57,548 nucleotides of DNA from Ectocarpus siliculosus (lineage: Eukaryota > Sar > Phaeophyceae > Ectocarpales > Ectocarpaceae): assembly GCA_000310025.1 (NCBI GenBank), contig FN649746.1, positions 2,313,105 to 2,370,652 of the forward strand. The letters run 5' to 3'. A program made the translations under genes and the position numbers. Positions 6,801-50,392 of the stretch are shown piece by piece. How positions within the stretch are numbered: position 1 is the first letter of the stretch; every line of letters begins with the position of its first letter. A model generated the notes under the pieces. The model was not told the origin of the DNA. It did no database searches and saw only the letters and a program-made list of their open reading frames with translations.

Positions 6801-7448
6801 CGGCGACATCCTGCTGCGCGATACGTACAGTGTGGCAAGAGCGGGGAGAGAACCGAACATTCCAGCAGGCAGCGTCGTCAACTGGTTGTAGCCCAGGTAC
6901 CTGCGGGTTCGTCGGGAGGATGAGAGAGGTCCGGGAGACAACTGAGCAATGTCACCCGTGTCCGTTACTGCATTGCGGTCACGAGTGGGCTGCTACATTG
7001 AGAGCGTCGATCGTCAAACGTCAATGGCGGACCCTAGTGACACTTGGAACAACGTACAGCCGGTCTGCTTCGATACAGACTTGTCCGGAGTATCGTGGTC
7101 ACAATATACATATGTTACCAAATTCTACAACGCGCTCATTCCACACCAGACGTCTGGAGAATCGGCTCATTCCCTACGGTTTAGAAACAAGCACGCCGAA
7201 TTCATCTGCACGACCTTCCGGCCGTCCGTCCGTACGAAGTCCAACTCATCGAAAGCGACGACCGTGAAAGTCGTCGTTCGACCAGCTTTACACGGGAACT
7301 ACACCAGAAGAATTCCGTTCTTCGTGTTACCCAATGGACATCTTTTACCGACGACATTCAGCTGCACGATACGTACAGTAGCGTCATGGCCTGAAGCGAA
7401 TCGAAAGTCCCAGCAGGCAGCGTCGTCATGTCGTTGGAGCTCATGTAC
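3834..7448 (-). repeat. array of 72-nt LRR exons, copy A
   Basis: Exons at 7377-7448, 6829-6900, 6297-6368, 5754-5825 and 3834-3905 belong to a family of about 540-bp units. Each unit has the same exon plus a related intron with recognisable motifs (gcagtggcggattcatgcaa; acctccgttcatcgt). Exons 5213-5284 and 4366-4437 have different introns and a divergent repeat (LPAGMFGSGSQL; LPVGVFDHLILL). The exon at about 4896-4965 keeps LPVGLFASS but has lost a usable acceptor phase. The unit structure shows expansion by duplication of exon plus intron. Confidence 0.85.
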
Positions 7449-13723: not shown

Positions 13724-13739
13724 TCTGGGGTAGCACGAC

Positions 13740-15900: not shown

Positions 15901-15904
15901 AACA

Positions 15905-25360: not shown

Positions 25361-28300
25361 CTATGGCGCCGGACTTGGCCGGACGTCAAAGGAAGTGGTT
25401 GGGCAGCGCCATATGATCGGCTGCTTCGTCCAGTGCAGTGAGGGACCGATCTTGTGGCTTGCCTCGTGCCTTGTACCCCACAGCAGTGCGTGGACCACTC
25501 TCCCCGCCTCGATTTCAGCCAGAAAACTTATATCATCGCTGTTGCAGCGTGTCGGCAGTCGAGATCCTCCGGCCTCCCCACCTTCTCTGTGTTCAGGTAC
25601 TACTTTGTTTCCCACCATCCATGCATGGCTGCCGTCGGAGTGGAAGTTATGCTCGAGGTGGGTTACCTCCACGTGGGCCTGATTGCCGTCAGGAACGTCA
25701 AGAAAGTCAAGCAGCGGGGGGTGAGCGACAGACTCGGCCTGTCACCTTAAGCCGAGCCGTACTCCCGTTGTACTCTGGGGGTGATTCTGCTGTCTCGTGG
25801 CGGTCTCCTACCGCCGGTAGCCTTCGTAAGTTTTTTCGTGCGGTCCGCGCGCACTCGTGTATCACTGTATGCCAGTGTTGGATATTGGTCGGGCAGAAGG
25901 GTTCGATACAATACGCCAATCGTATCGAGAAAAAAACACAAATACCGATATTTTGTTCGATATCCCGAAAATGGCTGGATACGTATCGAGTATCGATACT
26001 CGATATCGATACGGCTGTTTTGCAGGCCTCAGGTTACAAGAAGAGCGAGCGTTACGCAACTACACGTACCCTGGCACACCCGAACCCTTATCTGAAGTAT
26101 ACAGCAGTGCGCAAGACGTGCGCGCATGGTCCGGCGGCATGCAAGTAGTGGTGTTTGCCTGGTGCCAGGTGTGTGCAGTTAGTTAGTTGAACATCACGGG
26201 CACAACAACAGCGGGCACACGTTGTGACGTGATGTTGCGCATACAATAAAAAAAAAAAAGCTGCATCGTGCAAGAGGCAGGAGTTGGTTGTGTAGCTATG
26301 TCCACCAGATATATTTTACATTTTACAGTCAGTGTGCATGTGTGTATACACGTACACACTATAACAACACCGCCGTACGGTTGCGATCGAATCAGTGCAA
26401 GCTCGGCTGCGAGCAGGATTTCGTGACAAAAAAACGCGAAAAAAACTCGAACACTTGGTTTTATATTATCTTACTACCTTCAAAGTTATGCATGCAAAAT
26501 TCCACCCACCAGTTGTGGGTGCCAAACAATCAGCAATGCACCTCGAGCGAGTATCAACTCTAGAAAAACCAACAGCCAAAAGGAAACAAAAGAAAAAACA
26601 TGGCGAAAACATTATGTGCGAAAATCAAACGCTTGCCAAACTTGAACACGACGACATCACCTACGTCTATTCATCACACGCCCAACCAAGTGGTCGGACA
26701 TGAAATCAAGCACACCTTGCCATTACGTATTACAAGTCCCAAAACCAAGTTCACACAGCATAAATTGTCCGCAGGAGGTACGGCCTCTGTTCGCACTAAT
26801 GTAGCAGTTCTACTGCTGAAACTGCGGGAAACGCCAAATCTACGTAAGGAGGCAAGCTGACTCTAAAATTAACGGGGATGACTGCTACTCCTCATTCGGC
26901 AGAGGCAGCGCTATCGCCGGCGACAAAGCCGAATTCTTGAAGGCTCATGTTGCACACCGATGTGGTTCTCAGGAGCTGAGACACAGGCGCTGTTGGTGTG
27001 GTGTGTGGCTGGCAGGGGCTGGTGTGTGTGTGGTGTGTGGTTGTGATGGCAGTGGGGGGCGACAGGAGTAGGCGCGTAGCAGGCGCCTCCGGGGAGCGAA
27101 AAAAGGGGGTAGACAGCTGGGAAACTGACCCCCCCCTGGTAAAAAGGGGGCCAAAATATCGAGTATCGAATACCGATACCGATACAATACATACCGATTC
27201 GTATCGACAAATATCGGCGTGGAAACCGGCAATACCGATAGTATGCATAGACTATGCCCGCGTACCACAAATTACAGTCAACCGCCCAGCCAGATGGTTG
27301 TTTGTCGTCTCACGCCCGGGGAGATTCCCCGGTAGCGTGTCAGTGCTGTACTACGTCAGCACGCCAGCGCAGACTGTGTCTGTGTCACCGCCTAGTCAGG
27401 TCGGTTCTGCGTCATCAGGGCTGCGGAATGGTGTGCTGTGCACACCCCTCTTCACCCCTCCTCTGTCACTCTTCTTCTTTCCCTTTCTTCCCCGAGACCA
27501 CACCGTTGGCTCTTCCTAGAGAACTACTCCTGTCCCGCAAGTCTGTCCCGCAAGTCTGTGCACTAGCGACCCCCCACCGTCGCTCCGGAAGTCTCCTATG
27601 GTCACACAGTCGAGAGAAGGTTCAACCCTTTCCGTCGGTCTGAGATAGGTCACTCTTATCACCCACAGAAAAAATTATCTGAAAAGAAGTCCGGAGGTCT
27701 ACTTGTAAGGGGCTTCAAAATCATCAGGAAAAATCACAATCTTCTTCTGGTTCTTCTCCAAGAATCTACCTGGTTGATGTCGTCCCAACCTCATATTTGC
27801 AAACCCCATCAAACCCTTTCCTCTAAACCTCTGGTCAAACCACAAGAAGAATCACCCTTGTCAAGTGTCTTCATAAATTACCACCTCTGTGAAAGACGGC
27901 GGAACCTCACACGATGGATTAGACGACGAGCAACAACCTTTCACACTCCGCCCTTGGGGCAAACGGGGCAAACAGAACGAAGAGACAAACACGCAAGAAT
28001 CAGGTGCGGGCGACTGCGGACGGCGATAACGATACCACGAAACATGCGTCTCCTGTTCAAATATACTGGCCGGTGTAGAACAGAAGACGATTTGCCATTC
28101 GGCCGAACGAACGCGATTGAACTCAAGGCCTTTACTTCAACGCGGAACCCGTTTTCGTTCGTTCCCAGAGCTTGGCCGCCACCCCGTGCCTCCAGAGCTG
28201 TCCCCATCCTCAACCGATGGCAAACCCCTGTAGATCCCAAAACTAACGCTCTCTTTTGGTAGCCTTTCCGATCCCAAAAGCATGCCTCTGTTTCTCGTTT

Positions 28301-28990
28301 GCCTGGCAAACTGTAATTTTTTTCCGAACTAAGGAGAACGAAATGCAATGCCCACAGTCTATCATCATAGCCCCGTGGTGCCAATCCTGCCGCCGCCGAC
28401 AACTTGACCACGTCCTCCTCCTACATTGTCGGGGAAATGGTGGGTAATCATGCCGCTCCGGTTGATTAAATGTGCCCATCTTGAATGAAGTCCGTGCCCA
28501 ATGCCCCCTTGACGCGGTCTGCCAAACCACAGAGAAAGCCGGGAATCAAATGGCACAAGAGGCGCAGCGATTACTGATTAGAGGAAAATCGTGAAACTGG
28601 AGGCGGAAACTCTCGACACAGGAAATTCTCCATTTCACCCCAAGAGGAAAAAACGACACAGACCAGTAACTCCGCAATCGGACACTGTGACTCGAACGAC
28701 TCCACCAGGAAATGCCAATGGGAGGTGTGTTGAGGTGCGCGGTGCTTAGTTAGGTCGTATCACGGGCAGTGATCTTACACGAACAGACCCACGAGGTAAA
28801 GACCGTTCCGAGTAGAAACAACTTGCGCGTGACATTCCAGTGTCATTCGTCGTCGTATTTCACATCGCGCCTGTAGGTGCGGGTGTTGAAAGGCTGGCAA
28901 ACCTGCCCGACAGTCAAAGTTGAGCGCATTTTATAGGGGTTTCACGTCTTGGAAGAGCAAGCATCGGCAATTGGACGGCGCCATGACAGC
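25361..28990. other. region without a supported gene
   Basis: A 103-codon minus ORF at 25361-25672 has protein-like composition but overlaps plus ORFs of equal length and has no recognisable motif. 25890-26030 and 27145-27245 hold clusters of GATACC/GTATCGATAC-type repeats. 26245-26260 is an A run. 26300-27145 and 27250-28990 contain only short ORFs with no recognised family. The 3' UTR of the minus-strand gene ending at 29004 should lie at the right end of this stretch. Confidence 0.5.
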
Positions 28991-29003
28991 AGGGTCCTAG
29001 CAT

Positions 29004-30741
29004 CTACCCAGCGGTGCTCTCGGGCATCTTACAGTGTTCCTGCTGTCCTCGGATTGCCTCCATTCCGGCCATGATCGCCTTGCCGTTGGCGTCACGCGTC
29101 GGAGTGAACGTCTCGCCAAGAATACCTTTGGCATTGCGACTGACCTGTGCGTGACAGTTCACCGGACCGTCGGGGAGTAATTGTGAAGGTACTCCTTACA
29201 GCCTCCAAACATCTACAACACCTGAAAAACGTTTCATTGCAGCCTCAGACAGTGTTTCAGCCCTCAACGAAAAAACTGTAGCCCCCCGATGCCTGCGTGT
29301 CAGACGGTACTGACTGTTTGTACCCGTCGATGCATACCTCATTGTGGTCAACGGCCATGTTCATCTGCCAGGTGAGGTGATCGGGGAGATCGTACTTGTC
29401 CGTAGGGTCGCGCATGGCGATCTGGTGAAGCCTGCCGTGACTCAGGCGGACCGTAGCCTTGGGAGTTACTATCTGGAAGGAGGCGTGCTCAGACTGGTGA
29501 GTAAACACCCCACCTTCTTCAACCTCGGCGCGAGCCACGTACTCCACGCACTCGTCCATGTCGGTGGCGGTGGGATCCTTGAGATAAGCACGTGGGCGCA
29601 AGGGAAAAGGACCAAATAACCGTCATATGTAACGAGACCAGCCATGAACTTCATATAGGGGTACCGAAGCCTCTACATTCTTGCTGATCGAAGCGTTCGT
29701 GAAACACGATGTTGTAAGCTTGGTGTCTCCGCCACCAGCAACTGCGCTTATTGACGGAAAAAAATCGGAAATTCTTACCCCGAGGATCCACTCGCCCATG
29801 CCCACCGTCGTGTTCAGCCGGCGACCGTGCCTGGCGCTCTCGAGTCTCTTGCGCTCCCAGTACTATGAGGTGGTCAGCATGTTCGGACATTCCGGGGAAT
29901 ACGAGTGCAAAACGTCTGAGTGAGACCGATTGAATTGGTTTCCTAAACTCAGGTTTCGAACCAAATCTACCCCAGAAAGCAACACAGACAGGGTATCAGC
30001 GTTGCAAGCCAAAGCAGGGCACCAGAGACGAATACATCGGTGTGATACGGCGAAAGGCGAGAATGTCATACACATTATCCGCGAACCTGTTCGAAGTCGA
30101 ACGAGCGGCAGGCTCCAGGAAGGTTGGCCGCCGAGACTTGCACGTCTTGGCCGAGGGAAACCGTCCCGGGGGCGAGCAGTTTCTCTTCATCGTCGAGAAG
30201 CACGCTCAGCGAGCCATCCGCGAGGCATGGGGACAGTCCGGCGGGGCAAGAGCTGTCGAGGTTGTGGGGTTCCCTAACTTCGATTACCACTGAATGGTGA
30301 ACGCCATTCTCGTCGGTGGCGAGGACAGACAAACCTGTTAGGGTCAACGAGAAACGCAATGAAGAATATTCGGACGTGGATGGCACGCACCGTTTAAACG
30401 TTGCCCCTGTTTCGTCGACGATTTTAGCTTGATCCTAGACACGGGAGATGGCACTCAATCGCTTTGTTGTTGGTGTGGTTTCTACGCTCCTTCTTCCGAT
30501 TAGCATGGGTTCATTTACCGAAGAAGCGCGTATCAGCGCGTCGTGAGGCCCATGAAATGATTTGAAATACAGATGGCTGTAGCCATACCGGTGATGTACG
30601 TGATCTCGGGTAGGTCGGGGACGGGCGACGTGACCCGCATGTTGATGTGCATGTTGTCGTCGGCAATGAGCGAGTACCACGCCCCGTCCTCTCCGGTGAA
30701 GTCGAACTTCTGCCCAGAAAAGCCAAACATGTGACGATCGC
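29004..30741 (-). CDS. vWD-like C-terminal module (five exons)
   Basis: The preceding exon's NPTAC-G joins 30589-30741 (DRHMFGFSGQKFDFTGEDGA, INMRVTSPVP), then 30087-30334 (LSVLATDENGVHHSVVIEVR), 29779-29862 (YWERKRLESARHGRRLNTTV), 29338-29577 (HASFQIVTPKATVRLSHGRL, HLTWQMNMAVDHNE) and 29004-29144 (VSRNAKGILGETFTPTRDAN) to a TAG. Phases match at all five joins. The motif G-D-x-H-x-x-G-x-x-G-x-x-F-D-F-x-G followed by GILGE recalls von Willebrand D or plant Root_cap domains; here Arg replaces the usual Pro in GDPH. Such domains are extracellular and mediate assembly or Ca binding, so that role is an inference. Confidence 0.8.
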
Positions 30742-33700
30742 CTGAGGAGTGACCAAGGAAGCGTTGGTTGAGATTGGTCGAAATAGAAAGTGAAAGATTC
30801 GTTGATGCGGCTTCAGGTGGAGTTCCTGTTACATGCAAACAAATGAGTCCACGACACGTGCCCAGTACTTCCGACAGCCCCCAAGCGCGGCTACAATCAT
30901 TGAGTTCCACCACTATTCCGAATCGCCCACGTCGAGATTTCGTATTCGTGACCAAGACGTACTACATGGCAGTACCATGCATGCGGGTTCGTCGCCAGGA
31001 CGACGTGTGTCAAAATGACTCCGGAGCAGCGCAGGGCGGAAAAAAGGGCGTAGTTCAAACGTTTCCGTGAAACCCCGGCGGTGTGACACCCTGCGAGCCC
31101 CCAACGCGCGGACGCAAACAGCGTACGAGAGCACTCTTCAGGATTCTCCTCAACTTGGCCATCCGTCTGCCGCCAGCGTAAAATGGGACTCGTTGATGGG
31201 GAACATCTCAGCACCAACAATCATCAGCGCGCTACTATCCCTCCGGAAACGACTCGTGAACTTGCCCTTCGCTGCGAGTCAGGTAGTCAGACCGAACACA
31301 ACGACTTATTTTACCAAACAACGAGAAGAAACAATATAGCTCGTGGGATATTTTGGAATTACTGTAGGTCAGAGCAACTTCGAGAGGCAGTCAGCATCTC
31401 ACCGCAGGCCGTCGGATTGTAGAGGAACTCGTCGTCGCGATCCACGCAAACAAGCCTATCGTCACAGCAAACCTGGTCTGTCTCGCAGTCGCGGTTGTCG
31501 TTGTTCGGATCGCACGCCACCGGCACCGCTTCAAAGGGAGGTACGACGGCGGGCGACGTCGGAGAGAACCTTAAAAACGGAATTACATCCTTTGAGAGAA
31601 AGTCGACCATCTACAGACATATGTTTGACTTGGTCAGGCCCAATTCAACCCAAGCCTGACGGAACTTTGGTGATGGGTGAAAGGGGCACTGTGCCCGTAT
31701 TTGAAGTTCGACGCGATGCCGCTCGCCTGAGTGCGCCTTGCCGGGAGATGGTCCCGACGAGGTAAGTCACGGCAAAGATCGATTCATCATAACGATCAGA
31801 AAAAGCCAACCAGATTCAGATTGCCTGGATCGTTCCTCTCACCACACGTGTATCCTGCGGGCCCAGGGGTGCATTGCAGTTCTTGTTCGCTGCACGGGTT
31901 GGAGAAGTCCCCAAATTCACATCCTGCAGGCGTTCCGCGACACACACGAAAAGGTTGGCTAGTCTCTCTCATGGTTTGGTCTATGGCGGCCAGATTCCGT
32001 CAGGTACGTCATGTCGACTTCATACAGACTATGCAATCGTTGAATGTTCCAAGTACTATCCTGGAAGCCAGCTTCACAATTTCTGCAAGGACATCCAATA
32101 TCCCTTGTCAGCACCACGCAGTGGATGCCGTACTTGCTTTCAACTCTTCTCCAATGCGACTCCCATGGAAGGTGGGCTTTGGTAAGTTTGGCGTTAGTAC
32201 CGAGCGAGTTTCCCCGAAAAACAACTTCATAGCCGATTGAAATGTAGAACATGGCTCTGAAGTTTCAGTCGTAAAATACAGGTACAAGTAGGGCCATGGA
32301 AAAGTGATTCTCATTTGTTGAATACAGCCGCACGCCAACGTCGGGTTGCCCGCCGAACTATCAAGCAAAAAACAGAGAGCAACCGACGTGTACGCACTGC
32401 AACAATACCCGGCTGTAGTACTCGATTCTCACTGCTACACTGCCCCGATCGCCGAGCATTCACTCCTTCACTACACCGCTCGTCGAGCAGAGCAATGGCG
32501 GGATGCTGCGCGAACAAGCACCTAGACGAAACACCCAAGACACCAAACAAGTACGCGAATCGCCGCTTGGTGCACCAAGGCAGTGATGCACCTAGCCCAC
32601 ATGTGAGGACTGCCCGAACGTCTGAACGCCGGCGAGCTGCTTGTATGGGTCTGTACTACGCGTTACGCCCCTCCAGCTACTCTTGGGGACTACTCACCAC
32701 ATTCCGTGCCGATTGTATCGCTAAGGTAGGCCCGGCTGCCATCATGTACAGGTTGCGGAAGTTGAAGTTACCGAGAAAGTATCAGATTAGTCACGGCGCA
32801 ATCCCTTGAGCTGTTGGTACGTGGCAGAGACCGCTCACTTTGTGTGGAGTTCTGACCCCCGGCGAGGCGCGGCATCATACCCGCGGCAAATCGGAGAAGC
32901 AGCGGAGCTGAGATCTTGGATTGATTCGAAATGTTAGCTGCTGAGCACCATCCATGCATGCATGTAAACCGTGAGGAGCTGAGTACCTTACATACACAAA
33001 GGCATCGATATATGTTTCAAGGCCCTATCCTGTATCGACCTTTCTCAACATTACGTCGGAACAATCCAAAGCAGTCCTCACATATCGGTTAATGGCAAGG
33101 TCGGCAGGCACTCCAGGTCCGTGTTGTCGCTGAGGTCTCTGAGAATCAGTCAATAAAAAATGCAGTTCGCCGGCGAAGGGACAGAGAATCAACCAACATA
33201 GACGGCGAGGCTAGCAACCTTCCTCAAGGGTGACTGCAAGACACACCCTCCATTAAGACCCGCGACAGGTTCCGTAGAATCACTTGACTCGGAAACGGCA
33301 CCAAAGTTTCAAGGATGATGCTCCATTGTAGTACTTCCAAATAGACTGTAGTATCAGAGCCAATCTACAAAAGTATTACCTGGTACTTGCCTTGCAGACG
33401 AATCTACATTTGGTCAGAAAGTCATCCTACGCGCCCTGATCTATCACCAGACGGCTCCGTCCAATTGTCACAGGTCTGCTGGCGAAAGAGAGGAACCGAG
33501 CAAGCAACTCATCGCAAATCCGACGGCAAGTGGAAACCCGTTCGTGCGACCACCTGCCATTCCCGAATAGTTTTTCCAGAAATCACAGGGTTCGGAGCGC
33601 ACCAGTTGACCTACTACAGGTCCAGCCAATCCAAATATCATGATAAAGCGGAACACTAAACCCATATCAACCACTCACTTGAAGCTACCTGCTGGGAAGG

Positions 33701-36700
33701 GACTTACAGAGTTTCCAGGGCCTCGAGAGATTCGAATATCCCGGCTGGCAGCGTCGTCAAAGAGTTGGAATTAATGGACCTTTCGAATTGTCAGGGGGGC
33801 CGCGCAGGTCGGCGAGGTGTGAGAGGAATCCAGGTTTCAAGCGACTCTTGTTTTTCCATCTCCGCCATGAAGGGTTCACTATTTGCTCGGTAGCGCCGAT
33901 AGCCCAAGATGAAGGTGTGGGTGAGTGGAAGCACTCAGCTCTCGGATGAACGTACCATCCGATATGCTGATGCAGTTAGATACACAAACAGTCGTACGTG
34001 TAGTCTTACACCCAGCAGTCATGATGAAATGGAAATAATTTCATCGTACAACAGCGACGAGGAAGGGGGTTAGTCGCAACAATACTGTTAATGAGCCAGA
34101 CACAGGTACTCTGCCGGGCGCCCGTCCACGCAATTTCTTTATTTTACAAACGAACGGTCGTGGTCGTTAGCGTACAACCTTCTGAATTGTCCGGTCCATT
34201 GGTGCAGAGCAGCAATAAACAGTGACACCCATTGCAATGCCGCCGCCACTTCATATCGGCACCAGCACCCCAGCAACGGTGACATGCTGTTACGATACTT
34301 ACAGATCGATCAGGTTCGGGAGAGAATCGAATATCCCCGAAGGAAGCATCATCAAATCGTTATCGCGAAGCTCCCTGTGGATTTGTTGGGAGCGCGACAC
34401 ACATGGCACCCGAAGAGCAGGTATGTATGTCATCTATTGGTAGTTGCATCTCAACCGTGAAATGGTACGTTCACTTGTGAATGCCGATAACCCAACATCA
34501 AGCTGTCCGCGGAGTCACCAATTTTCTGACCAACGTACCATTCGATCTGCTTGGGTCCCCTATCTGCAAACTGGAGTCAGAGCACCAATTGATTAATCAC
34601 TCACCGTAGAACGCAGACGATAGGACAGGTTCTCCGGAAGCAGGTAAAATACATTTTCTACATACTGTTTGGTACCAACTAAACTCGTTAAGACGTCGTC
34701 AGGGTGTCATTCAACCTGCTCAAGTGCGCCCAGCCATTCAGCACTTCCGTCCACGATTCGGCCATCAATCCCCATTGATTCTATATCCGCGGCTCCACGA
34801 CAGCATGCCGTCATGACACTTACAGGCTCGTCATGGCTGGCAGAGAATCGAATATCCCAGCAGGCAGCGTCGTCAGGTCATTGTAGCCCAGGTTTCTGCG
34901 GGTTTGTCGGGAGGGCGACAGAATTCCAGAAGGGAAGACGACGAAGGAGAAAGTGTCATCCTCGTCTGTTTCTGCATTTTGGTCACGGGTTGGTTACTAC
35001 TGTAGTTGGGAAGCTCGATTGTCGAAAGCGAATGCAGTGGCGGATTCATACAACATGGGACAGCGTACAGCAGAGCTGTTCCCAGACATACTGCATGCAG
35101 TATCGTTGTCACTGCTTCGTTTTCCCTAGCATGCTCACTCTACAGCAGAGTGTTAGGGATTCGGGTTATTCCCCACGGTTTAGCAAGCAAGTCAAGCACA
35201 TGTAGGGGACCCCCGGGCCATCCGTCCCCACGATTCCGTATCAAATAGTAGAGGACTACGGTGTCAATCGATTCGCCTAAATGGATGCAACAACTCAGCA
35301 CGTCCGTTCGTCACGATCCCGCAACCAACCCCATCAAGGTTCATTGGGAGAACGGGAAAGCCCGAGTTGAAGCGGTGAAAGCACGTACAACCCACCCGAG
35401 AAAGCTGAAAATGTTCCGGTGTCCTCCCGACAACGCATCCGTGCTGGATCGTAATCGGCAGTAGCGACTTTCACGCACGTACCAAAATGTTCAACCACTC
35501 AGTGTCGTCAATATCTATCAGCCAACTATCATGATTTCTTCGGCAACTTTCCCCCTCAACCTGCAGCTGTATGATACTCACATGAAAATCAGCTGGTTGC
35601 CGGAATCGAATATCCCGGCAGGCAACGACATCAGATTGTTGTCCGACAGGTCGCTGTGCGTTTGTCGGGAGGATGACATAGGTCAAGGAGGCGAAGAAAA
35701 TACCAAGTGTCACCCGCTTCTGTTGCTGCATTGCGGTCATGAACAGGCCGCCATGTTTGGGAGGTTCAATTGTCAAACGTGACACTGGGAGATTCATGCA
35801 ACACGTAACAGTGTACAGCGGATGTGCTGCTTCCAGACATCATACTGCCTGGAGCATCGCAGTCGCTGGACCAGTTTTCACGACGCGCTCACTCTACAGC
35901 AGCAGAGGGTTTGAGAATCGGCTCATTTCCCACGGTTTGGTACGCAACCCGAACACATCTCCAAGACCTGCCGAACATCCATTCGCACGAAGTCCAACTC
36001 ATCGAATACGAAGGCCCTAAAATGATTTACTACTACAGAATACCGGAAGACCTCCGTTCATCGTCTCATCCCGTGGACATCGGCTACCGGCGACATCCAG
36101 CTGTACGATACTTACATTACCGTCACGGCCGGGAGAGAATCAAATATCTCAGCAGGCAGCGTCGTCAGATCATTGTCGGACAGGTCCCTGCCAGTTCGTG
36201 AGGCGGATGGCGAGGGGTACGCCCCGGAGATCCCTCCTCTCAACGAGTAAGCAGCAAATAGCCTCAAGCCCATGTGATCCGGCCGGGTGCTAACGAGCTC
36301 TGAGCATATATTTTAATCACCATCCGGCTAGTCAACGCTGACTGGTCAGATGGTCTCATTTTATCTAATAGCGCTAACTCTACAGCGCTGGGTTAGAGAA
36401 CCGGGTCATCCCCCACGGTATCCAACAAGCCACGTACATTTTGGGGACCTGCCGGGTATCCGTCCCGCCAAGCCGAAGTAGACAACCACGGTAGTGTCTA
36501 CCAAAGACCCGAAAAGCGCGCAAACTCAGCAGGTCCGTTCGTCGCGATACCGCAACCAAACCAATCGATATTATAACCTTGAAGACTCTCAGCTGAACGA
36601 TACTCACAGTTCGGTCAACAGGATCAGGTGGTCGAACACCCCGACAGGCAGCGCCGACAGGGAGTTGTAGCTCAGATCGCTGCAGTTAGGAATGAGACAG

Positions 36701-39700
36701 GCCGAGGTGGGGCGGGTGATTGAAGAGATAAGTCTGATGTCGCACCTTGGCCGTGCAAGGGACACGCTGGCTCGGAAGGCCCGATAGCTCAACTCAGAAC
36801 CGGTGTCGCAGGCATGCAGCTTGACGCTCGTCACATGTGTTTCAGGCTTCCAATCATGCCATGGTGTGCATGAGCCACCGTATGTAGTACGAAACCACGC
36901 TCAAAACATACTACTGTACTGCAGTGTAGTTTTGACAGGACAGGCAGATTGGGCATACATAACGTAGCAAACAACCTGAACTCTTTCGCTTGACCTCTCG
37001 ACCATCCACCTCCTTCAAATAGAAATGCGTGCCCAAAAGTCGTGCGAGTGTTACGTGCCGAACGGAACCTTTGAACGCTTTCGTTGATCACAATACCAAC
37101 CACCCACGATGCTTCCCGCGACCTACCGCTGTACGCTACCCAGATTTCAGCTACACTTGCTGGTTTGAGGAAGCAAACAACCCGACCGGCAGCACCTTCA
37201 ATCCGGTACCGCTCGGGTCTGAGCTGATTAATTGGGAGAACCGGACAGCCCGATTTGGGGCGGTGAACCCAGGTAGCATCCACCCGAGCAAAGTTGTTAA
37301 TGTTCGGGTGACCTCCAGACAACGCGTCCGCACTGGGCCGTAGTTGGCAGCAACGACTGTCACGCACGTACCAAAATGTTCAACCACTCAGTGCTGCCGT
37401 TCGTCACGATCTAGCAGCCATATGTCATGCGTTCTTTGGCAGCATTGCCCCTATAATCTGCAGCTGAATGATGCTCACATGGTAGTCAGTTGATTGTCAG
37501 AACCAAACATGCCGGCAGGCAACGTCGCAAGTTGGTTGAAGGACAGACCCCTGCACATTTGTCGGGGCATAAGACAGGCCGAGCACGTGTGATTTCAAAG
37601 CAGATGTCACCAATTTTGTGCTGTTGAATTTCAGCCGTTAAAGCGCGCGAAGGCTTTAATATTCAATACATTATGACGACACTACGCGACATTGCGGCAG
37701 CTGTCATTCCTGTCTTGGAGTACCGTAGCCACGGAACCAAAAGACAACCGTTCGCCGACAAGAAGATATTGAGATAAATAGCTGATAATTCACCGCGGTG
37801 CCCAAGCAAGCCGGACATGTTCGGTTGATATGCCGGTCATCCGTCCACGGCAACTCTGACTTCCAAGAGAACGAAGGGTAATGAGCTTGACACCTGTTAG
37901 ATATTGGTGCGACACCCAACACTATCGGCAATCACGATATTACTGTAGCCAATACAACCCGTATCAACTTCATACCCTCAACATCGTTCTACCGTCCGAT
38001 ACGCACAGTTCCGTCAGGGCAGGGAGAGAACCGAAAATCCCAGTAGGCAGCGTCGCCAGGTCATTGTAGGTCACGCCCCTACGGGTTCGTCGGGGGGGTT
38101 GAACGACGTCCAACAGGGGAGACGAAGGAGCAAATGTCACCAGTTTTTCTGTTTCTGCATTACGGTCACGAGCGGGCCGCTAGTTTTGGAGGCTCGATCG
38201 TCAAACGTCAATGCAGTGGCGGATTCATGCAACATGGGACAGCGTTCAGCCGATCTGCTTCCAGACTGCCTGGAGCATCGTCGTCACCGCACCAGTTTTC
38301 ACACATACGCCCACTCTACAGCAGAGGGTGAGAGAATCCACTCTTTCCCAACGGTGTAGATAGCGAGTCGCATACACTGCACGAACCTGCTCGCTATTCA
38401 TGAATACGAGGTCCATCTCATCGAAAGCGACGGCCGTGAGTGTCATCAGTCCACTGGATGAATACGAGAGCTACACTGAAACACCTCCGTTCATCGTGTT
38501 CCCCCATGTGCATCTTCTACCACCGAATTCCAGCTGCACGATACGTACAGTTCTGTCAGAGCTGGGAGAGCACCGAACATCCCAGCAGGCAGCGTCGTCA
38601 GGTGGTTGTTGGTCATGTCCCTATGGGTTCGTCGGGAGGGTAGAACATGTCCGAGAGGGGAGACACAGGAGCAAGCGTCACCCGCTTCTGTTACTGCATT
38701 TCCGTCACGAGCGGGCTGCTAGCGCAGGAGAACCGACCGTCAAACGTGAATATGCAGTGGGGGATTCATGCGACAACATGCCACAGCGTACAGCCAATCT
38801 GTTTCCAGACGTACTGCCTGGATAGTAGGCACTGCATCGATTTTCAAACGCTCTCACTCTGCGGCAGATGATGTGAGAATCGGCTCATTCAACACGGCAT
38901 AGCAAGCGAATCTAGTACATCTGCACGACCTGCCGGCCGTCCCTACGCACGAAGTCCAACTCATCGAAAGCGACGGCCGTGAAAGTCGTCATTCGACTAC
39001 CTGAGTACGGGAGTTACACCGAAACACCTCCGTTCATCGTCTACCTTCATGGCTTCTACCGGCGACATTCAGCTGTGTGATACGTACAGTCTCGTCAGAG
39101 CCGGGAGAGAACCGAACATCCCAGCGGGCAATGTCGCCAGGTCGTTGTAGCCCAGGTACCTGCGGGTTCGTCGGGAGGGCGAGAAAGGTCCAAGAGGGGC
39201 GTCGAAGGAGCAAGTGCCCCCCGGCTCTGTTACTTCATTGCGGCCACGAAGGGCTCTTATTTGGGAGGCTCGATCCTCAAAACATGGATGCAGTGGCGGG
39301 TTGGTGTAACTTGGAACAGCGTAGCGTCGATCTGCTTCCATACACACGCCAGGATGTATGGTAGTCACAATACATTAACATATATATAGCACCAAATTTT
39401 ACACGCACTTATTCTACACCAGAGAGTTGGAGAATCGGTTGATTCCCGACGGTTTAGCAAGCACGCCGAATACCCTCAAGCCATTCGACCAGCTATATAC
39501 GGGCGCTACACCGGAAAAAATCCGTTCTTCGTATTCCCCCATGGACATTTTCCTCCGGCGACATTCAGCTGCACGATACGCACAGTAGCGTCATGGCCTG
39601 GAGCGAATCGAATGTCCCAGCAGGCAGCGTCGTCAGGGGGTTGCCGTTCATGTACCTGGGGGTTCGTCAGAGGGACGACAAAAATCGAGGAGGAGCGCCA

Positions 39701-42700
39701 AAAAAGCAGGTGTTACCCACTGCGGTAGTTGCGTATCGATCGTGTCAGCACAGGTTCGCTCGTCGGTAGTGTTGCCAGGTCAAAGTTAAAGCAATGAGCG
39801 GATGACTCAACTTTAGATCAGCGCACCGTTTAATCTTCTATAGGTTTCCATTCATGCAAGTACGCAGAGTGAATAGTAGTCGCGGCACCAATTGAAAACA
39901 CGTTAACGTACAGCACGGGCGACCAGACAGGGGTCATTCACGGTTGTGCGAACGAATCAGACGCATTTTGGTGACGTGCTGGCTATCTATCTATAACAAA
40001 TCTCAAGTTTTACATTATAAACTACTGTAGTCGCGAGAGTCCATTCACCCTGCTGCAAAGGGTGATGTCATTCAATGACACCGTTTATCGCTGTACGGCA
40101 ACCGAATTCCATCGACATCACTATTGTTATCAGTTCATATTTATCATCGAGAACGATGAATCGACGAGAGCTGCTACGGCTGCCCCTGTACAGCAGAGGC
40201 GTCAGGATTCCGGGTCCCATCATTACGATTCCTCAAGCAAGCTGCCCACATTCGGATGTACGAGACTCGTTGACCTCCGGGCTATTGATCTACATCAAAT
40301 CGAGGTAGGCACAATGGTCGTGGGACATATCTCAATTCGCTACACGGCAGGCAGGAAATGAAGTAGCACATCGTCGGGCTGTCGCAGCCAACTCCCCCAA
40401 ACTCATCATTCCATCTCGAACCTACAGCTCTACGGCACTCAGGCTTCCGTCAGGAGGTTGAGAGAATCGAATATCCTTTCAGGCATCGTCTCCAGTTCGT
40501 TATAGCCTAGGTTTCCGTGGTATGACCGGGGGGAAACCTTAAGGGGGATAGAACTGCAGCAGTCACCCACTTTCCACTATAGCCTTTCGGCCGCAAAGGA
40601 GGGTGCTACAGTAGCTCGGAAGGCGCGAGCGTACGAGCCAAAAGCGTCGGCGACATCATCACATAGCCTGGGATCACATGGTCTAAAACTCGGTCGCTTT
40701 AGATTTGTTACAATGGCATGGTGTACGTTTAGTTGACGGGCCCCCTGCCATACAATAGAGGTGACAGAATGGGCTCATCCGTCGTGCTCCGTAACCAATC
40801 GGGGCTTCGACAGTATGTTCCTTTTTGGTCAGCATGAGTGACTACATAGGGTATGGCGACTGCCCACCCCTGGAGCGGGACCGCCACCGGGATCACACTA
40901 CTCTCTTGGCGTACAGATGTAGATCGGTTTGAAAGTAAATATGTGGGCGTTATCATCGTATGATCGTGAGAAGCTGTCACGTTTCGCCGAGCGGGCTTAG
41001 TGTCATTCCTCCCGTGCGCCATCTATGTACGCCCTAACTCATTCATTATGTCTGTCAATTTGAAGTCTTGGAGAATCGTCGTTGTGAGGGAGGTATGCCG
41101 AAAGGTACACCACAAGTTAGTAAGAGGAGGAAAAGCGACAGCATTCGTGTGACGCGGTGCAACTGTTATCATTTCACGATAGACGAGTAGCGGGCGGTTT
41201 GGCGGTTTGTGGTGGAATATGTACACTGTAGAGTACGATCGTTTTCGCGAGAACCACCCGGCGCAATAGTGGTTGATTGGCTGATTATTGATGTTCAATT
41301 GGCAGAAGGCGAGCAGGCGATGGCATGCAACCCGCAACAGGAAGTGGCATCCCATCCCTAACCCAACTTGTAGCGACGTGTGCTGGTAGGTTGCGGATAG
41401 CGTGTGATATCGTACGTCTGCAATATGAGGTCAAACAGGGATGATACACAAACCAGAGACTACAGAAGAAAGTTGGAAATGCCGAGTTTTTGCGTCTTCA
41501 AGGACGTTACCCACCGTCATCTCGCGACGGAAGCGTGCGCTCTATGTTGCACGGGCAATGGTTTCAGCAGCATGTGTGTATTTTCACCCGGCAAAAAGAA
41601 ATATGGCGTGATTTACAATAGGGCGAAAAAACACGAAAAAAGCAAAATTTGGCGTAAATAAAGCCCAAAGAATTCTGAGATCGAGATGTGCGCGTCGTAC
41701 GGACTTCTACAATGAAATAAACATAGAATCTGGTCATCACGAGTCATGGTTTGTTGTTGTTGTCTTCACACATAAAAAACCGTTCCGTCTCCCATCAGTA
41801 CCTTCTAGTTTCCGTACTGGTCCAACAGACGCGGGCGCCGTGGTCACAAGCCACAACTACCCCCGAAGAAAAGGGGGTACAACTTTCAAAAACAAAATGA
41901 CCCGATTGAACCCAGTCATGACTCGGTCATGACCCGATCGTGACTCGGTCACAACCCGTGCACGACTGGGTCATGACCGAGTCATGATCACGATCAGGCC
42001 ATGACCCCCAGTCATCGAGATGGAGAGGCATGACCCCTATCATGACCGAAAAGTCATGCCTCGGTCATGCTTATTTCGTGTCTCTCGGCATGACCGACTT
42101 CTGGCCAGTTCATGACCCGGTCTTGACCGAGTCATGACTCAGTAATGACTTCCTTTGCAATAAACTATCCGCTTTGGCAGGGGTATGAAGCCGGCGAAAA
42201 AAAAATTCCACGAACCCTAACCACAACGAACACTAAACTCGTACGATAGGTGTTATGTTGGCGCTCGGCGGATGAGTTCTAGGTGGGGGGGCTGCCGGGA
42301 TAGGTGCTAAGTTGGTTATCAAGGCGACATTTCTAGGTGGATCCACCGGCGGCGTAAACGCTTCGTTATCGTTGATGGTTACATGATGACATCATCATGT
42401 CTCGGTCGTGGTCTACTCATGGTGATCCTGTCATGACGCCATCACCAATCGTGGTTGATCAACAGCCCTTACCCCAATTAATGGGTATTCCCACCGTGTG
42501 TCTCATTAAACGTCGTGGTTGTCCTCGTTAACTCCTCGGCGGTAATGGTTCCGCCGAATTACCACAGGAACCGTTTCCCGTGATCCTGTAAAAGTGGGGA
42601 TTACCGTTCCCATCCAACTCATTCACCGTGATAATCGGATCTATGTCCCGTTAACGCCCAAACCGTCAACGAAAAAATGGCAATGCCCCAAAACCGCACA

Positions 42701-45700
42701 AACAAATACCGCGCAATATCGCAATTCCCGCGTTTTCGAGTTACCGCGGAGGAAACTACCGCAAGAGCAACAACAATATATCATCTACCGCGGAGACAGA
42801 CCAAGTGAATTTCTGGGATGTTTTTCACTGTTTCTCTCGTGTCATTTGTTGCTCTTCTTGATTCTTCGCTCCTTTGTTACCTGATTGACAGATTTGACTC
42901 AGGTTTTCATTATTCATTGTTTGTTTATGTGCGGGCCTGTTGCGCGCCTGTTGCGCGGGATAATGTTCATTCTTGTTTTTGTTCTGAACCGTTGGTTTCC
43001 TTGGTTTCTCTCTGGATAAGGGAGACGGCCCTTGCTATATTTGTTCTCTCTGGTGATCGGATGGCATCAATTCTTGCCGTAGCGATGGAACTACGTCGTC
43101 GACATGAGGCCGCGAGGGCCTTCATGCAATGAAGTGGTAGTATACTGTCTGTATTTTTCCGTTTCTCTTTGGAGAGCGGTTGGGTTGACGGGCGTAATGC
43201 TCTGTGATCGTGTCGCGCACGTTGGTTGTGCCGTGACCAAATGCTTAAGCAACACGTGAACGAAAACAAAAACAGGGCACTACGTACCATGGTGTAATGA
43301 ACGGCAGAAGGGCAACCGTCGTGACCAGTTACCGCAAAAAATGCGCACATTTCTGTGCGTTACCGTGGTGGATGAAGTACAGAACAATTATCGTGGTGTA
43401 CGGAATTTACCGAGGTGGGCAATTACAGCCCAAAATTTACTGTATTGTACCTTGGTTTCTGGTGAACGCGGGAATTGATCGTGACATGAAAAATCGTTAA
43501 CGAGGACAGGTCTGTAAAACATGACTTGACAGGTTTAGATGCATAACATAGACACGATAGTTTTTCCGTCACCTGACGGTCACCTCCAAAGCGAAACTCG
43601 TTGAGGCCTCAGCAGGCCACTCCAGCAACCGCAATGCCAGATGACCCCCTTTCCCAGCCACCTAGGGAGTGTACATCCTGGCATTTGGTGGCTATCAAAC
43701 CATGCCATTACCGATTCCAAATAGAGTTCGCTCACAGCTCAGCACGCGATCAACACATCGAATAATCAGCCGTGAAGCTGCATCTAGATGGAGTGAATGT
43801 CCCTCCAGGTTAGAGGTAAGACTGGCGTTGGATTATTGCACCAGCAACTATCCTTTACGCCACACCCTTGCAATGGAAGCCTTAGCGCGGTGGAAGTGCA
43901 CCCATTCTGCTCGCCAGGAGAAACGTATCACTGTGCATCCCCACCCTTCCGTGCATGTCGCAAGTGCTTGCATGTCCCCGAGGTTGAAATTGACATGCTA
44001 CATACAACAATATAAACACATTTCATACAAGGAAAACTGGTAAGCACGATGGAGTCGTGTGACCATTCGCCGACACGGTATTTGGTTCTGCACCTACGCG
44101 GCGCAGGCCTTCAGGCTGTCTCAAGAACATGCTGTGCCAAGTCTGCGGCAATAGCAGCGCGTAACGTCCCCCCTAGCCAAATAGCTTGTCAGACTCACAG
44201 TCCGTAGATGTTGTTTTCTCCAAAGTGTTCAAAACACGCCTTCAAATCTCCCGCCACGACATCGTCATCGGTTATGCCGCACGACCAGCCGAGCTCCCTG
44301 GAATAATCGCCCGGAAATACGTGGCGGACAGAACGTGAAATACGACCCTTTCGGTGGTGCAGCGCTTTTTCCCTCGTTCATGAATGTCTAGCCATTCCCG
44401 CGCCAATTGTCCGTCCAAAAGGTGTTACAGGTATCTTATGAAGGTATCAGTGTGGTTCCAACAGAATTTCCTGAACAATCCACGGAATCGTGAGGCAAGA
44501 CCTAACGAGCATACCATGCCTGGTATCATCAGTTTGTTATGAGAATCTTGACATGGGCACTCACAGGTCGTGGCTGGATTCGAACGTGCATTGGCCGGTG
44601 TTGAGGTCCAAGCACGAATTCACTGCATCGAACATGTCGATCACACAGGATGACGGTATTATTGGGACACAATGAACGACGAGGTCTCACGACGAGTTTT
44701 GTCCAAGCAGATTAACATGTTGTGGGATGAACGTCGCGATAAATACAGCTTCCAGGAAGACAGCATGGTATGGCCAAAGCCGGACGGCACAAAACAATGG
44801 GCTGAGCACCAGACGACGACCAAGGGGCATTGGAACGGTTCAATAGATACTATTCCAGTTCTAGGTTGCCTTCAGCCTCAGTCGTCCTGCCCATGTATTG
44901 CCGTGGCCACCAGCATAGGGATTTTCCGAACGTGGTCAAAACCCACGAAATGGGCACCCAATGGAGTACGATAATATCGACAAACACCAACATCGCCCTC
45001 CACTTAGGCACGATACAGCATATTAATGTGCCTTGATTCCGAAAATACCACTTGCAAGATTCGATGTGTGTGATTTCAGGACATTTTTCGGTTCTCGTGG
45101 TACGAGGACATACCGGTATTTTGCCACACTATCTCGAAAGCGACGAAGTCATTGTGCATGTATCTGAATATATTTTATATTCGTAGTTCCTCGTCTCCAA
45201 GGCAAACGAGGATGAAAATGGTGCAAAGGCTTTTGCCAAGTTGGGTACAAGCTGGTTCACGGAAATGAAACCAGAACTAGTAACCGCAGCTGCCAGACGA
45301 ACTTTCGACATCAAAATGACACATGTGGTATCATGGAGACCCTCATGAGAAAGGAAAAAGTTATCTTAGCCGGGAGTTTGATCCGAGTCATGGTCACAAA
45401 GCTAAGGACATAAACGTCCATCAGCCAATCACATTCTTCAACATGAACCGTAGAGCTCACAATCCATGCAATACCGCACTATCAACCCCTCTTTGTACCG
45501 CAGTGTTATATTCTAGGGGACCTATGTGGCGAAAAAACATTTTGGCAGCGAGTGATGCCCAAGATGGTGGTGGTTCGGCTGACGCAATTTGGCGTCGTCG
45601 AATGTCCACTGACATTGCTTGTAAGTTGGAATCAAACACAAAAAAAGCCTCGTGGTATGCGGGGTGAATGTATCGAAGGAAATGCAGTCCTCAATTGGAC

Positions 45701-47469
45701 AATGCAACAAAGCGCGGCAAACCGTTCAACGAAAGTTGAGGGACTAACAGGCCAATAGGGGTCCTCGGTGTGGGACCCCCGAAAGCCGGTGCAATATGTT
45801 TGAATGTCGATTTTCACGATTCGTTCCGCTGAGAGATAGTGCAATATAGCTTTCCAGTACGGTTCGTAGAAAAACTTGTATCGCTGACGCAACAGGGCTT
45901 TGAAGTGTAAGAGGGGCCCCGCGGGTGCGATCCTTTACTACAATGAAGTGTTGTTTTGGGCAACTCAGGATTTGGGGTGCGCAATAAAATGGTTAAAACC
46001 TCACACCGTGCTTTTGGAGCGCCGTGTTTTTGGAGTTTGACATTGGACCTTCATGAATTTTGGGTCAATGCGGAACTCTATGTGTGTGCCTTACAAGACC
46101 ATGCATATCCGGCGACAGCAGAAGAACATGATAGGGTACTAGACAAGACAGAGTTTCGCATTGAGACCCAAAGTACATGCGTGCAGAGTTTCAGAGTGTA
46201 TCTCCAAAATCGGTGTACGGTTTTCACGTTGACCATCTGTACCTTTTCCCGTAAACCATATATTGTAGCCGGTCCCAAACCACACTGGAAAACCTTACAG
46301 AGACTTTTGCAATACGCGTCAGAATGGGGTACCGGGTCTACCTAGATATACTACCACCGGTGCAGCCACCAGCGACTTCGCCCCCAATCAAATTACTGTC
46401 CTAGAGTACACTCCATTGTACTGGGACGCAATCATTTGTTTGATATTGGGAAAGGATTGAGTTAGAAAAAAAGCCTCCTGATCAAGACCGTTCCAAGACG
46501 GATTCAGGGGATCGCCTTGAGACACGCTCCGAGCTTGTCGTTGACAGGAATTGCTTCTGGCAGCGGCAACTAGCCAGAATTGGTTGGTGCTCTCATCCCT
46601 GAGATATGCAATAATCCGTTCGCGGGTTCTGGTGCTTGCTGGCCGCGAACACTGGACGGTCCTCAGGAGCCTTGTAGGGCGGATAAACGCACGGCAAATG
46701 AAGCAATGTCTTGAATGAAAATCACTAGGCTGATCCTACTGCGCTCGGCGCTGGCGGTCGTCACATCATCACGCTGATCCTACAGGCAAAACCTCTGTTC
46801 CCATGGGTTGCCGTAGTTCAAACGGATGGCGCACGGGAAGCGGAAAACGAAGGCCATACAGCATGGGGAACACCGGGTCCTCAATTCATTGTTGCGGGGG
46901 ACCATCGATCTTCTGTTGAGTCCCACCAGCAACTTTCTGCCGAAGTGCTGTCTCGAGAACGCCGTGCAGGTGAACAGGTTTTGGGGAAGACTACTAGAAA
47001 GGTGATAGGAACGCCGCAAGACGCTCAGTGTGGCCTCGACAACTGCGTTCGCTTCGAATAATTGCTTATGGCCGACTACAAGGAGACCGACCATTTGCTT
47101 TTGCTTCCCGATGCCGCCTTGTATCGTCGGAGCACATCCATTAATTGTCCCGTTCACCGATTGGATTGATCCCGTGACTTGAACGCCCACAATGAGCCGT
47201 GAACGCAGTGAATTATGAGCTTAGGGATAATAAGCCCATTTGCGTAGCAGTACGTCGCCATTCTAGTCGCCCTGAGAGTGGTAGCAAACCCACAACCAAA
47301 CAGCCAAGCGATGGCCGCAAAAGGATTAAACTCTTTCGCCGAGAAGATACCCGAGCAACACGAGTAGAGTCCCGACGCAAGCCATTGGTTTTGTCAACCT
47401 ACCAGCACTGGTGATGACGCCGCAGCACGCCACCAGTAACGCCACAACCGGTGGGAAGAAGTTGATCAT
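29004..47469 (-). CDS. LRR gene, copy B: secreted LRR protein with Cys-rich and vWD-like C-terminus
   Basis: Exons in order: 47403-47469 (signal peptide), 44565-44622, 44199-44297 (N-cap), 40443-40514 (dead), 39584-39655, 39088-39159, 38549-38620, 38007-38078, 37479-37550, 37155-37223, 36608-36679, 36116-36187, 35582-35653, 34824-34895, 34303-34374, 33708-33779, 33082-33138 (C-cap), 32839-32907 (candidate), gap, 31843-31958, 31666-31726, 31403-31569, 30589-30741, 30087-30334, 29779-29862, 29338-29577, 29004-29144 (stop). Phases agree from exon 1 to 32839 and from 31958 to the stop. The link between these blocks (32250-32830) is not resolved, so two adjacent genes remain possible. The protein should be extracellular, with an LRR recognition face and a Cys-rich tail. 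No transmembrane helix, kinase or GTPase was seen. Confidence 0.55.
31403..32907 (-). CDS. Cys-rich linker exons between the LRR array and the vWD-like module
   Basis: 31843-31958 encodes FRVCRGTPAGCEFG then DFSNPCSEQELQCTPGPA, a Cys pattern like EGF or ephrin-receptor repeats. 31666-31726 reads ERHRVELQIRAQCPFHPSP but uses a weak donor. 31403-31569 carries VACDPNNDNRDCETDQVCCD and ends in phase 1 at TAC-G. A possible exon upstream of 31958 has NCEAGFQDSTWNIQ (about 32045-32090). 32839-32907 (SAASPICRGYDAAPRRGSEL) is a phase-2 candidate. Splicing between 32839 and 31958 is unresolved. Confidence 0.5.
33082..33138 (-). CDS. LRR C-cap exon of copy B
   Basis: Phase 2 in and out, reading DLSDNTDLECLPTLPLTD with donor AT|GTGAGG. 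It keeps the LRR start DLSDN, then turns into a Cys-Leu-Pro end typical of the last repeat in brown-algal LRR proteins as I recall them. It marks the end of the LRR array. Confidence 0.65.
33708..39655 (-). repeat. array of phase-2 LRR exons, copy B
   Basis: Twelve exons, eleven of 72 nt and one of 69 nt, each coding one LRR with the pattern L-x-x-N-x-L-x-x-LP-x-G-x-F. Examples: GLSFNQLATLPAGMFGSDNQ (37479), DLSYNSLSALPVGVFDHLIL (36608), NLGYNDLTTLPAGIFDSLPA (34824), ELRDNDLMMLPSGIFDSLPN (34303), SINSNSLTTLPAGIFESLEA (33708). All have AG acceptors and GT donors, with no stop codon. The exons at 36116, 35582, 34824, 34303 and 33708 have no full counterpart in copy A. Confidence 0.88.
40443..40514 (-). 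pseudogene. LRR exon with both splice sites lost (copy B)
   Basis: The reading frame is still open (NLGYNELETMPERIFDSLNL) but the acceptor is GG and the donor reads GC|CTGAGT. Skipping it leaves the reading frame unchanged. Confidence 0.65.
40850..41890. other. copy-B-specific insertion, no gene recognised
   Basis: Absent from copy A at the same point. Its right part (41750-41870, ttgttgttgtcttcac; gtactggtccaac) resembles 9210-9330 of copy A, so part of it was moved by a local rearrangement. The only notable ORF is 85 codons (41404-41661) without a known motif. Confidence 0.5.
41896..42160. repeat. GTCATGAC-rich palindromic repeat block, copy B
   Basis: Counterpart of the copy-A block with the same palindromic core and similar order, for example gggtcatgaccgagtcatga. 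It lies in the intron between N-cap and LRR exons. Confidence 0.75.
42520..43508. mobile_element. non-autonomous TIR DNA transposon (989 bp)
   Basis: An exact 13-bp terminal inverted repeat, TGTCCTCGTTAAC at 42520-42532 and GTTAACGAGGACA at 43496-43508, is flanked on both sides by ggt, a 3-bp target-site duplication. The element is missing from copy A. An internal plus ORF (42818-43132) ends in MASILAVAMELRRRHEAARA, which resembles the Arg-rich N-terminus of Harbinger-type transposases, but no catalytic domain is present. A PIF/Harbinger-like deletion derivative is the likeliest class, given the 3-bp duplication. Confidence 0.75.
44199..44622 (-). CDS. exons 2 and 3 (Cys exon and N-cap) of LRR copy B
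   Basis: 44565-44622 reads NSCLDLNTGQCTFESSHD. 44199-44297 reads ELGWSCGITDDDVVAGDLKA then CFEHFGENNIYG. Both end in GTGAGT donors in phase 2 and match copy A. The N-cap has one extra codon compared with copy A, in phase. Both exons are open. Confidence 0.65.
45956..46345 (+). other. 130-codon ORF of uncertain status
   Basis: Open reading frame in the first intron of LRR copy B. The copy-A counterpart (about 12170-12560) has several small indels that change frame, including two 2-bp insertions. No motif is recognised. Most likely a chance ORF or an old remnant. Confidence 0.2.
47403..47469 (-). CDS. signal-peptide exon of LRR copy B
   Basis: Reads MINFFPPVVALLVACCGVI then TSA, with donor G|GTAGGT in phase 1. 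It has the same length as the copy-A exon and keeps the hydrophobic core despite substitutions. It joins in phase to 44565-44622. Confidence 0.65.

Positions 47470-49749: not shown

Positions 49750-49753
<4 letters not shown>

Positions 49754-49795
<42 letters not shown>
49754..49795. repeat. (GA)n microsatellite
   Basis: About 21 GA units. The copy-A counterpart at 15670-15685 has only about eight, so the tract has changed length since the duplication. Confidence 0.9.
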
Positions 49796-49799
<4 letters not shown>

Positions 49800-50034
49800 C
49801 GCCCAGTTGTTGAGTGTTTGAATTCCCCTGCTGTTCCTCGCCCAAGAAGGCCAGTAACACACACTTCGATCGCGGACATCTTTGAGACAAACACACACAA
49901 GAAGACCTCACCGGCACACCTACTACATAAATGTCAGCGCGGGATAATAGGCCAACGTCGGCCGATCGCCCGACAGAAAAAAAAACTGGAAGACGATCGA
50001 ACCCGACCAACAACAGGAAAAGCTTGATTTTGTT

Positions 50035-50392
50035 ATCACTCTACAGTAAGTTTGCGCTCACATCACCCACGGTATTTATTCCTGAAGTACTGCCGTGTAG
50101 GAGCTCCAATCTGCGGCCACACAGAAGGCCTCCTCTCCGTCGTCCCCTCCTGCGTTGTATGCGTTCGATTTTTATCTCGAGGAGAGTGCGGCACCAGATA
50201 TCTTCCATCAAAGTGTACTACTTTTTTCTTGGTTCGTTCTACTGGCCATAGTGCATTCAACGCCCAGGAACACGAGCGATATAACAACTCTTTTTAGCAA
50301 GAGCAGCTCGATTTCGCCGGGGTACGAACCCCTAACCCTATTTAGTTGCTACTTGTAGAAGGTAATACACCAACCAGATGTACCGGGGCAAA
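50035..50392 (-). mobile_element. SINE family 2, copy-B counterpart of 15905-16240
   Basis: Reverse-oriented head with a B-box relative (ggggttcgtaccccggcgaa) and the family-2 body. Shared by both duplication copies, hence an old insertion. Confidence 0.65.

What the first reader, a model, noticed from the sequence alone, without database searches (positions are those of the whole stretch)
33082..39655. LRR exons are frame-neutral modules: one 24-residue repeat per 72-nt exon, phase 2 on both sides
Nearly every LRR exon in both gene copies is exactly 72 nt with phase-2 introns on each side. Any exon can be skipped, duplicated or swapped without breaking the frame, which is the condition for exon shuffling or alternative LRR combinations. 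This matches the architecture described for Ectocarpus LRR genes proposed as candidate pathogen receptors.
Basis: partly seen in the sequence, partly recalled or inferred. Interest (0 to 1): 0.85.

Follow-up and report, generated by a model that had tools for sequence, protein, structure and literature searches.

The report
Duplicated array of 72-base LRR exons
An algal gene builds a leucine-rich-repeat protein from interchangeable 72-base exons, one repeat each, a layout already reported from brown algae; here the two duplicated copies kept the same exons in the same order, so the modules could be shuffled but at this locus have not been.

Summary
On the minus strand, 11 of 12 LRR units in copy B (33708-40514) are AG|72 nt|GT, phase 2 on both sides; the twelfth is degenerate. 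A 57-nt phase-2/2 cap exon follows (33082-33138). Copy A also has 11 of 12, seven good ones in the window and four left of it. A profile trained on B exons found arrays elsewhere in the genome: 63 of 65 hits are AG|72|GT. The layout is published for brown algae (Teng 2024, citing Zambounis 2012). Two points change the reading. First, after about 0.23 dS, A and B keep the same 11 exons in the same order, with no exon swap seen; a young array on contig C15 is mosaic. Second, no ROC or COR match was found in the window, and the register differs: in published ROCO exons the ligand strand lies inside one exon, here the intron cuts it. The most variable residues flank the intron, and every A/B exon pairing would give Leu, Ile or Met at the split codon. 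Each binding rung is thus written by two exons. Splicing, isoforms and an immune role are untested.

The parts
39584..39655 (-). B LRR exon 1, 72 nt
39088..39159 (-). B LRR exon 2, 72 nt
38549..38620 (-). B LRR exon 3, 72 nt
38007..38078 (-). B LRR exon 4, 72 nt
37479..37550 (-). B LRR exon 5, 72 nt, ends AT
37152..37223 (-). B degenerate unit (AG before, GC instead of GT after; not counted as an exon)
36608..36679 (-). B LRR exon 6, 72 nt
36116..36187 (-). B LRR exon 7, 72 nt, ends AT; its upstream intron cannot be aligned to A's
35582..35653 (-). B LRR exon 8, 72 nt, ends AT
34824..34895 (-). B LRR exon 9, 72 nt
34303..34374 (-). B LRR exon 10, 72 nt
33708..33779 (-). B LRR exon 11, 72 nt
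33082..33138 (-). B terminal LRR cap exon, 57 nt, phase 2/2, DLSDNTDLECLPTLPLTD
   Evidence: reading frame kept in A
40443..40514 (-). B degenerate 5'-most LRR unit, no AG and no GT at the expected places
7377..7448 (-). A LRR exon 1, 72 nt
6829..6900 (-). A LRR exon 2, 72 nt
6297..6368 (-). A LRR exon 3, 72 nt
5754..5825 (-). A LRR exon 4, 72 nt
5213..5284 (-). A LRR exon 5, 72 nt
4366..4437 (-). A LRR exon 6, 72 nt
3834..3905 (-). A LRR exon 7, 72 nt; A exons 8-11 lie outside the window at C21:2300412-2302302
8208..8279 (-). A degenerate 5'-most LRR unit: GT present, no AG at the expected place
27708..51753 (.). B side of the segmental duplication; A side is window 4130-17229 plus C21:2294433-2302391

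Best explanation
This is a gene that encodes a curved domain of 11 typical 24-residue leucine-rich repeats. It arose by tandem duplication of a roughly 0.5-kb unit, one 72-nt exon plus its intron. Because every good unit starts and ends in phase 2 and the split codon is CT|N or AT|N, any gain, loss or swap of units keeps the frame and the structural Leu/Ile/Met (shown from sequence). The intron lies inside the ligand-facing beta-strand, so the variable residues sit at the two ends of each exon and each rung of the binding face is written by two neighbouring exons (positions shown; placing them on the concave face rests on general knowledge of the LRR fold, recalled). The whole locus was later copied as a segment of at least 20 kb. 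Since then the exon set has stayed fixed and change has come by point substitution, enriched in the concave codons (shown). The likely role is a binding or recognition protein (inferred). Its C-terminal part, location and ligand are not known.
For: AG|72|GT in 11 B exons and in 11 of 12 A units; repeat units include introns; A/B colinear over both flanks; an exon's best match in the partner copy is at the same position in 10 of 11 (A to B) and 11 of 11 (B to A); dN 0.114, dS 0.226, ratio 0.51; nonsynonymous rate at positions 1,3,4,22,23 is 0.177 against 0.085 elsewhere, Fisher p 0.005; entropy over 80 distinct exons is highest at 23, 3, 1, 4, 6, 22; in three other arrays concave pN (0.46, 0.41, 0.36) exceeds intron divergence (0.18, 0.26, 0.12) (with 12 of 12, 6 of 7 and 5 of 5 exons); LRR_8 at 5e-63.
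Against: No RNA: splicing is inferred from splice signals and conservation. A ratio of 0.51 over all codons is also compatible with relaxed constraint. Position 6 is not in the chosen concave set, yet has the most A/B nonsynonymous changes (9). In A/B, concave pN (0.177) is below concave pS (0.226), so there is no sign of positive selection there. Copy A is split by about 14 kb that includes DNA like the window's copia-type element and a run of N, so A may be dead. The best solved relatives include intracellular LRR proteins (SHOC-2, LRRD1) as well as extracellular ones (LRRTM, LRRC15) (locations recalled), so they do not tell the location. One pair of copies is a small sample.
Confidence: 0.72

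Rival explanations
1. One reading: the array is a shuffling or alternatively spliced receptor that yields many LRR combinations, as in the proposed brown-algal immune receptors.
For: Frame-neutral modules; published ROCO genes with 72-bp phase-2 exons have splice variants with different LRR sets (PMC11378527, passages, section 11); in the same genome the C15:5219581-5225081 array is mosaic, flanks and exon of one unit matching different partners.
Against: At this locus the exon set and order did not change between duplicates. Splicing could not be tested.
Confidence: 0.2
2. It is a ROCO (LRR-ROC-COR) gene whose GTPase part was missed.
For: Same exon length and phase as ROCO LRR exons.
Against: No ROC or COR match in the window; the published exon register differs; eight loci upstream of ROC matches (of 54 matches listed) held no such exons by the profile, and these and the region of the only COR match gave one poor hit in a generic scan. 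The genome search scores candidates exon by exon and can miss weak matches, and it is not shown that the sampled ROC matches are ROCO genes.
Confidence: 0.05
3. Both copies are decaying remnants and the regular exons are relics.
For: A is split by about 14 kb; degenerate units in both copies; dN/dS 0.51.
Against: 11 of 12 units in each copy are open with both splice sites after dS 0.23; the cap-exon frame is kept.
Confidence: 0.1

Closest known systems
Brown-algal ROCO LRR exons (Teng et al. 2024, PMC11378527: passages and section 11; Zambounis et al. 2012: not held, known here only as cited)
   Same: 72-nt exons, phase 2, one LRR per exon, variable concave residues, tandem arrays
   Different: No ROC/COR found here; by the paper's text the 17-residue LRR segment and the selected sites 14,16,18,19 lie within one exon, whereas here the segment is cut by the intron and the most variable sites are 22,23 and 1,3,4,6
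Non-ROCO sequences with 72-bp LRR exons, mostly LRR only (15 in Saccharina japonica, PMC11378527, passages)
   Same: LRR exons of 72 bp outside ROCO genes; may be the same class
   Different: The passages give no sequence or register, so identity could not be tested
[quoted passage not shown]
   Same: Tandem exons of exact length, phase-2 introns, unequal crossing over proposed
   Different: 90 bp and 30 residues; ciliate; thousands of genes; linked there to a LINE-like element
Animal gonadotrophin-receptor LRR exons (as discussed in PMC11378527)
   Same: Similar-sized LRR exons with phase-2 introns
   Different: Ectodomain of a G-protein-coupled receptor (recalled); register not compared here

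Membership tests
Brown-algal 72-nt LRR exon class | exon exactly 72 nt, phase 2 both sides, one LRR per exon | tested here: met
   11 of 12 profile hits in each copy; 63 of 65 in other stretches
Brown-algal 72-nt LRR exon class | host is a brown alga | tested here: inconclusive
   One light-harvesting gene in the same genome matches fucoxanthin-chlorophyll proteins, so a fucoxanthin alga; the species was not established
ROCO | ROC-COR tandem after the LRRs | tested here: not met
   no match in the window; sensitivity limited
ROCO | LRR strand and selected sites inside one exon | tested here: not met
   variable positions flank the intron against sites 14,16,18,19 in the paper
Shuffling or alternatively spliced immune receptor | different exon sets between copies | tested here: not met
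   A and B have the same 11 exons in order
Shuffling or alternatively spliced immune receptor | different exon sets between alleles or transcripts | not testable with these tools
   needs RNA or several strains
Shuffling or alternatively spliced immune receptor | binds pathogen molecules | not testable with these tools
   needs protein
Typical LRR (LRR_8) | Pfam LRR_8 above cut-off | tested here: met
   209 bits, cut-off 27, on the 11 B exons joined

The most novel reading that the evidence does not exclude
A class of LRR genes, separate from ROCO, in which the intron bisects the hypervariable beta-strand, so every exon junction makes a binding rung from two exons. With n interchangeable exons there are n x n possible rungs, all frame-safe and, for the A/B exons, all with Leu, Ile or Met at the junction. 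Splicing or recombination would then create new binding rungs, not only new orders of old ones.
Probability: 0.2. Interest if true: 0.8.

Novelty: new member of a known kind. Interest (0 to 1): 0.45.

Why it matters
Whether brown algae use LRR exon shuffling to diversify immune receptors was raised in 2012 (as cited in PMC11378527) and is still unproven. Here the same module occurs in one genome as a fixed, duplicated array and as a young mosaic array, which gives a matched pair for the test. The intron position gives a sharp prediction: exon choice changes individual binding rungs.

Tried and rejected
Considered and rejected: ROCO membership. An exon swap at A 3834 / B 36116 (made it look non-orthologous with introns included; one search shows that only B's upstream intron fails to align). 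The idea that copy A had lost four exons (they lie left of the window behind an insertion). One gene together with the downstream von-Willebrand-D-like exons at 29.3-32.0 kb: same strand and more conserved than the array, but no Pfam match; the other places of that family are far from the other LRR arrays, the nearest being C4:3564421-3565265, about 36 kb downstream of the C4 array on the same strand; left open. A first scan for any 72-nt AG..GT or AG..GC open stretch with a loose LRR motif gave mostly noise and was replaced by the profile. The paper search for animal LRR exons (passages) gave nothing on repeat register. The cap exon is not universal: seen on the array strand in 6 of 14 arrays (A, B, L004, L019, L020, L030), not in the stretches held for L005, L006, L024-L029.

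Not in print: the intron-in-strand register was not seen in the listings or in the passages read of PMC11378527 and PMC6564038. Zambounis 2012 could not be read, so it may be described there.

Full report
What is there. The minus strand of 33708-39655 holds 11 LRR exons. Each is exactly 72 nt between AG and GT and reads as 1 nt + 23 codons + 2 nt. They were first picked by that rule; a profile made from them gives a twelfth hit at about 40443-40514 that lacks both splice sites. Joined, the 11 match Pfam LRR_8 at 209 bits. Their closest solved relatives are LRR proteins of several kinds, among them LRRTM, LRRC15, LRRD1 and SHOC-2. A 57-nt exon follows at 33082-33138 with the frame kept in both copies. 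Similar Cys-containing caps (N..LxCLP) lie just past the arrays in L004, L019, L020 and L030, but were not seen for eight other arrays in the stretches held.

The second copy. Window 3834-7448 holds seven such exons. Four more lie at C21:2300412-2302302, left of the window, behind about 14 kb that includes a stretch 82% like the window's copia-type element and a run of N that is a gap or a withheld stretch. A twelfth unit, about 8208-8279, keeps GT but has no AG at the expected place. A and B are colinear over large flanks: A 4130-17229 with B 36371-51753 (aligned identity 79%, 10137 of 12876, over A 3700-17400 and B 36000-51900), and window coordinates -18671 to -10713 with B 27708-35743 (BLAST identity 83%; 86%, 6817 of 7920, in the gapped alignment). 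So a segment, not only a gene, was copied.

Was anything shuffled since? No exon swap was seen. Each of 11 B exons is most like the A exon at its own position; 10 of 11 hold in the other direction. The exception, A 3834 / B 36116, has a downstream intron that matches its own partner best (0.81) and an upstream intron that cannot be aligned, which points to a replaced intron. In a few other units an intron piece scored slightly higher against another unit (A exon 2 upstream; A exons 1, 3 and 8 downstream), as expected for related units. dN is 0.114, dS 0.226.

Where the variation lies. Between A and B, nonsynonymous change at positions 1,3,4,22,23 is 0.177 per site against 0.085 elsewhere (p 0.005; counts are averages over paths, rounded for the test, and the positions were chosen from the LRR fold and after looking at the young arrays). 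Concave pS is 0.226, so this is weaker constraint rather than positive selection. Over 80 distinct exons of 85 typed, entropy is highest at 23, 3, 1, 4, 6 and 22, then 19. In three other arrays concave pN exceeds intron divergence (one of seven L005 exons was not used); in two of the three it also exceeds concave pS (0.459/0.394, 0.362/0.311), in L005 it does not (0.412/0.443). The top six positions flank the intron. The split codon is CT|N or AT|N: 374 Leu, 85 Met, 25 Ile of 484 possible A/B junctions.

The module in the genome. With a profile from the B peptides only, 24 of 24 hits in L004-L006 and 39 of 41 in nine more stretches are AG|72|GT. Of those 39, 36 end in CT, two in AT and one in TT, which can give Phe, so the Leu/Ile/Met rule is not absolute outside A/B. 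The C15 array (12 exons, mostly about 480-bp spacing) is young and mosaic: for example unit 9 matches unit 5 upstream (98%), unit 11 downstream (99.5%), but its exon matches none above 92%. The genome total is a lower bound; candidates were limited.

Is it ROCO? No ROC or COR match falls in the window. Ten-kb stretches upstream of eight ROC loci held no such exon; a generic scan of these and of the COR-hit region gave one poor hit. Whether these ROC matches are ROCO genes is not shown. Teng et al. place the conserved 17-residue LRR segment and the selected sites 14,16,18,19 within one 72-bp exon (section 11 read in full); here that segment is divided by the intron. They also mention 15 non-ROCO sequences with 72-bp LRR exons in S. 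japonica (passages), which may be this class.

How it most likely works. Shown: tandem exon-plus-intron units, frame safety, the same exon set since duplication, concave enrichment. Inferred: a binding protein whose rungs are each written by two exons. Not tested: splicing, isoforms, strain variation, ligand, location.

Verdict. The evolutionary claim holds for the module but was not borne out at this locus.

Noticed in passing
window 17461-24781: Copia-type LTR retroelement (gag, integrase and reverse-transcriptase frames by eye) with about 357-bp end repeats 99.7% identical, so a recent insertion between the two copies.
   Followed up: partly
window 29257-32000, minus; C21:2296851-2297532: Cys-rich and von-Willebrand-D-like exons (name by eye; HMFGFSGQKFDFTGEDG) just downstream of the LRR array, over 90% alike between copies in much of the stretch, no Pfam match; the genome search listed 74 matches at E up to 10, own copies and split exons included, so an expanded uncharacterised family.
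   Followed up: partly
window 47403-47469, minus; A near 13.7 kb: Possible signal-peptide exon (MINFFPPVVALLVACCGVITSAG, with GTAGGT at its end), kept in both copies; may be the gene's 5' end.
   Followed up: partly
window 3147-3680: A 530-bp stretch that matches its own reverse complement at 83%, like a foldback element, beside the broken end of copy A.
   Followed up: no
window 1652-2875 (+) and 56904-57374 (-): Two long frames that look by eye like tyrosine recombinases of mobile elements; no Pfam match at E 0.1.
   Followed up: no
L004 (C15:5219581-5225081): Young array of 12 near-identical LRR units, three exons present twice letter for letter, with mosaic flanks; a good place to look for strain differences.
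   Followed up: partly
C92, C232, C488: Many identical-scoring light-harvesting genes in clusters (20 places at the same score, 18 on these contigs and one each on C11 and C18), a recent amplification or an assembly artefact.
   Followed up: no
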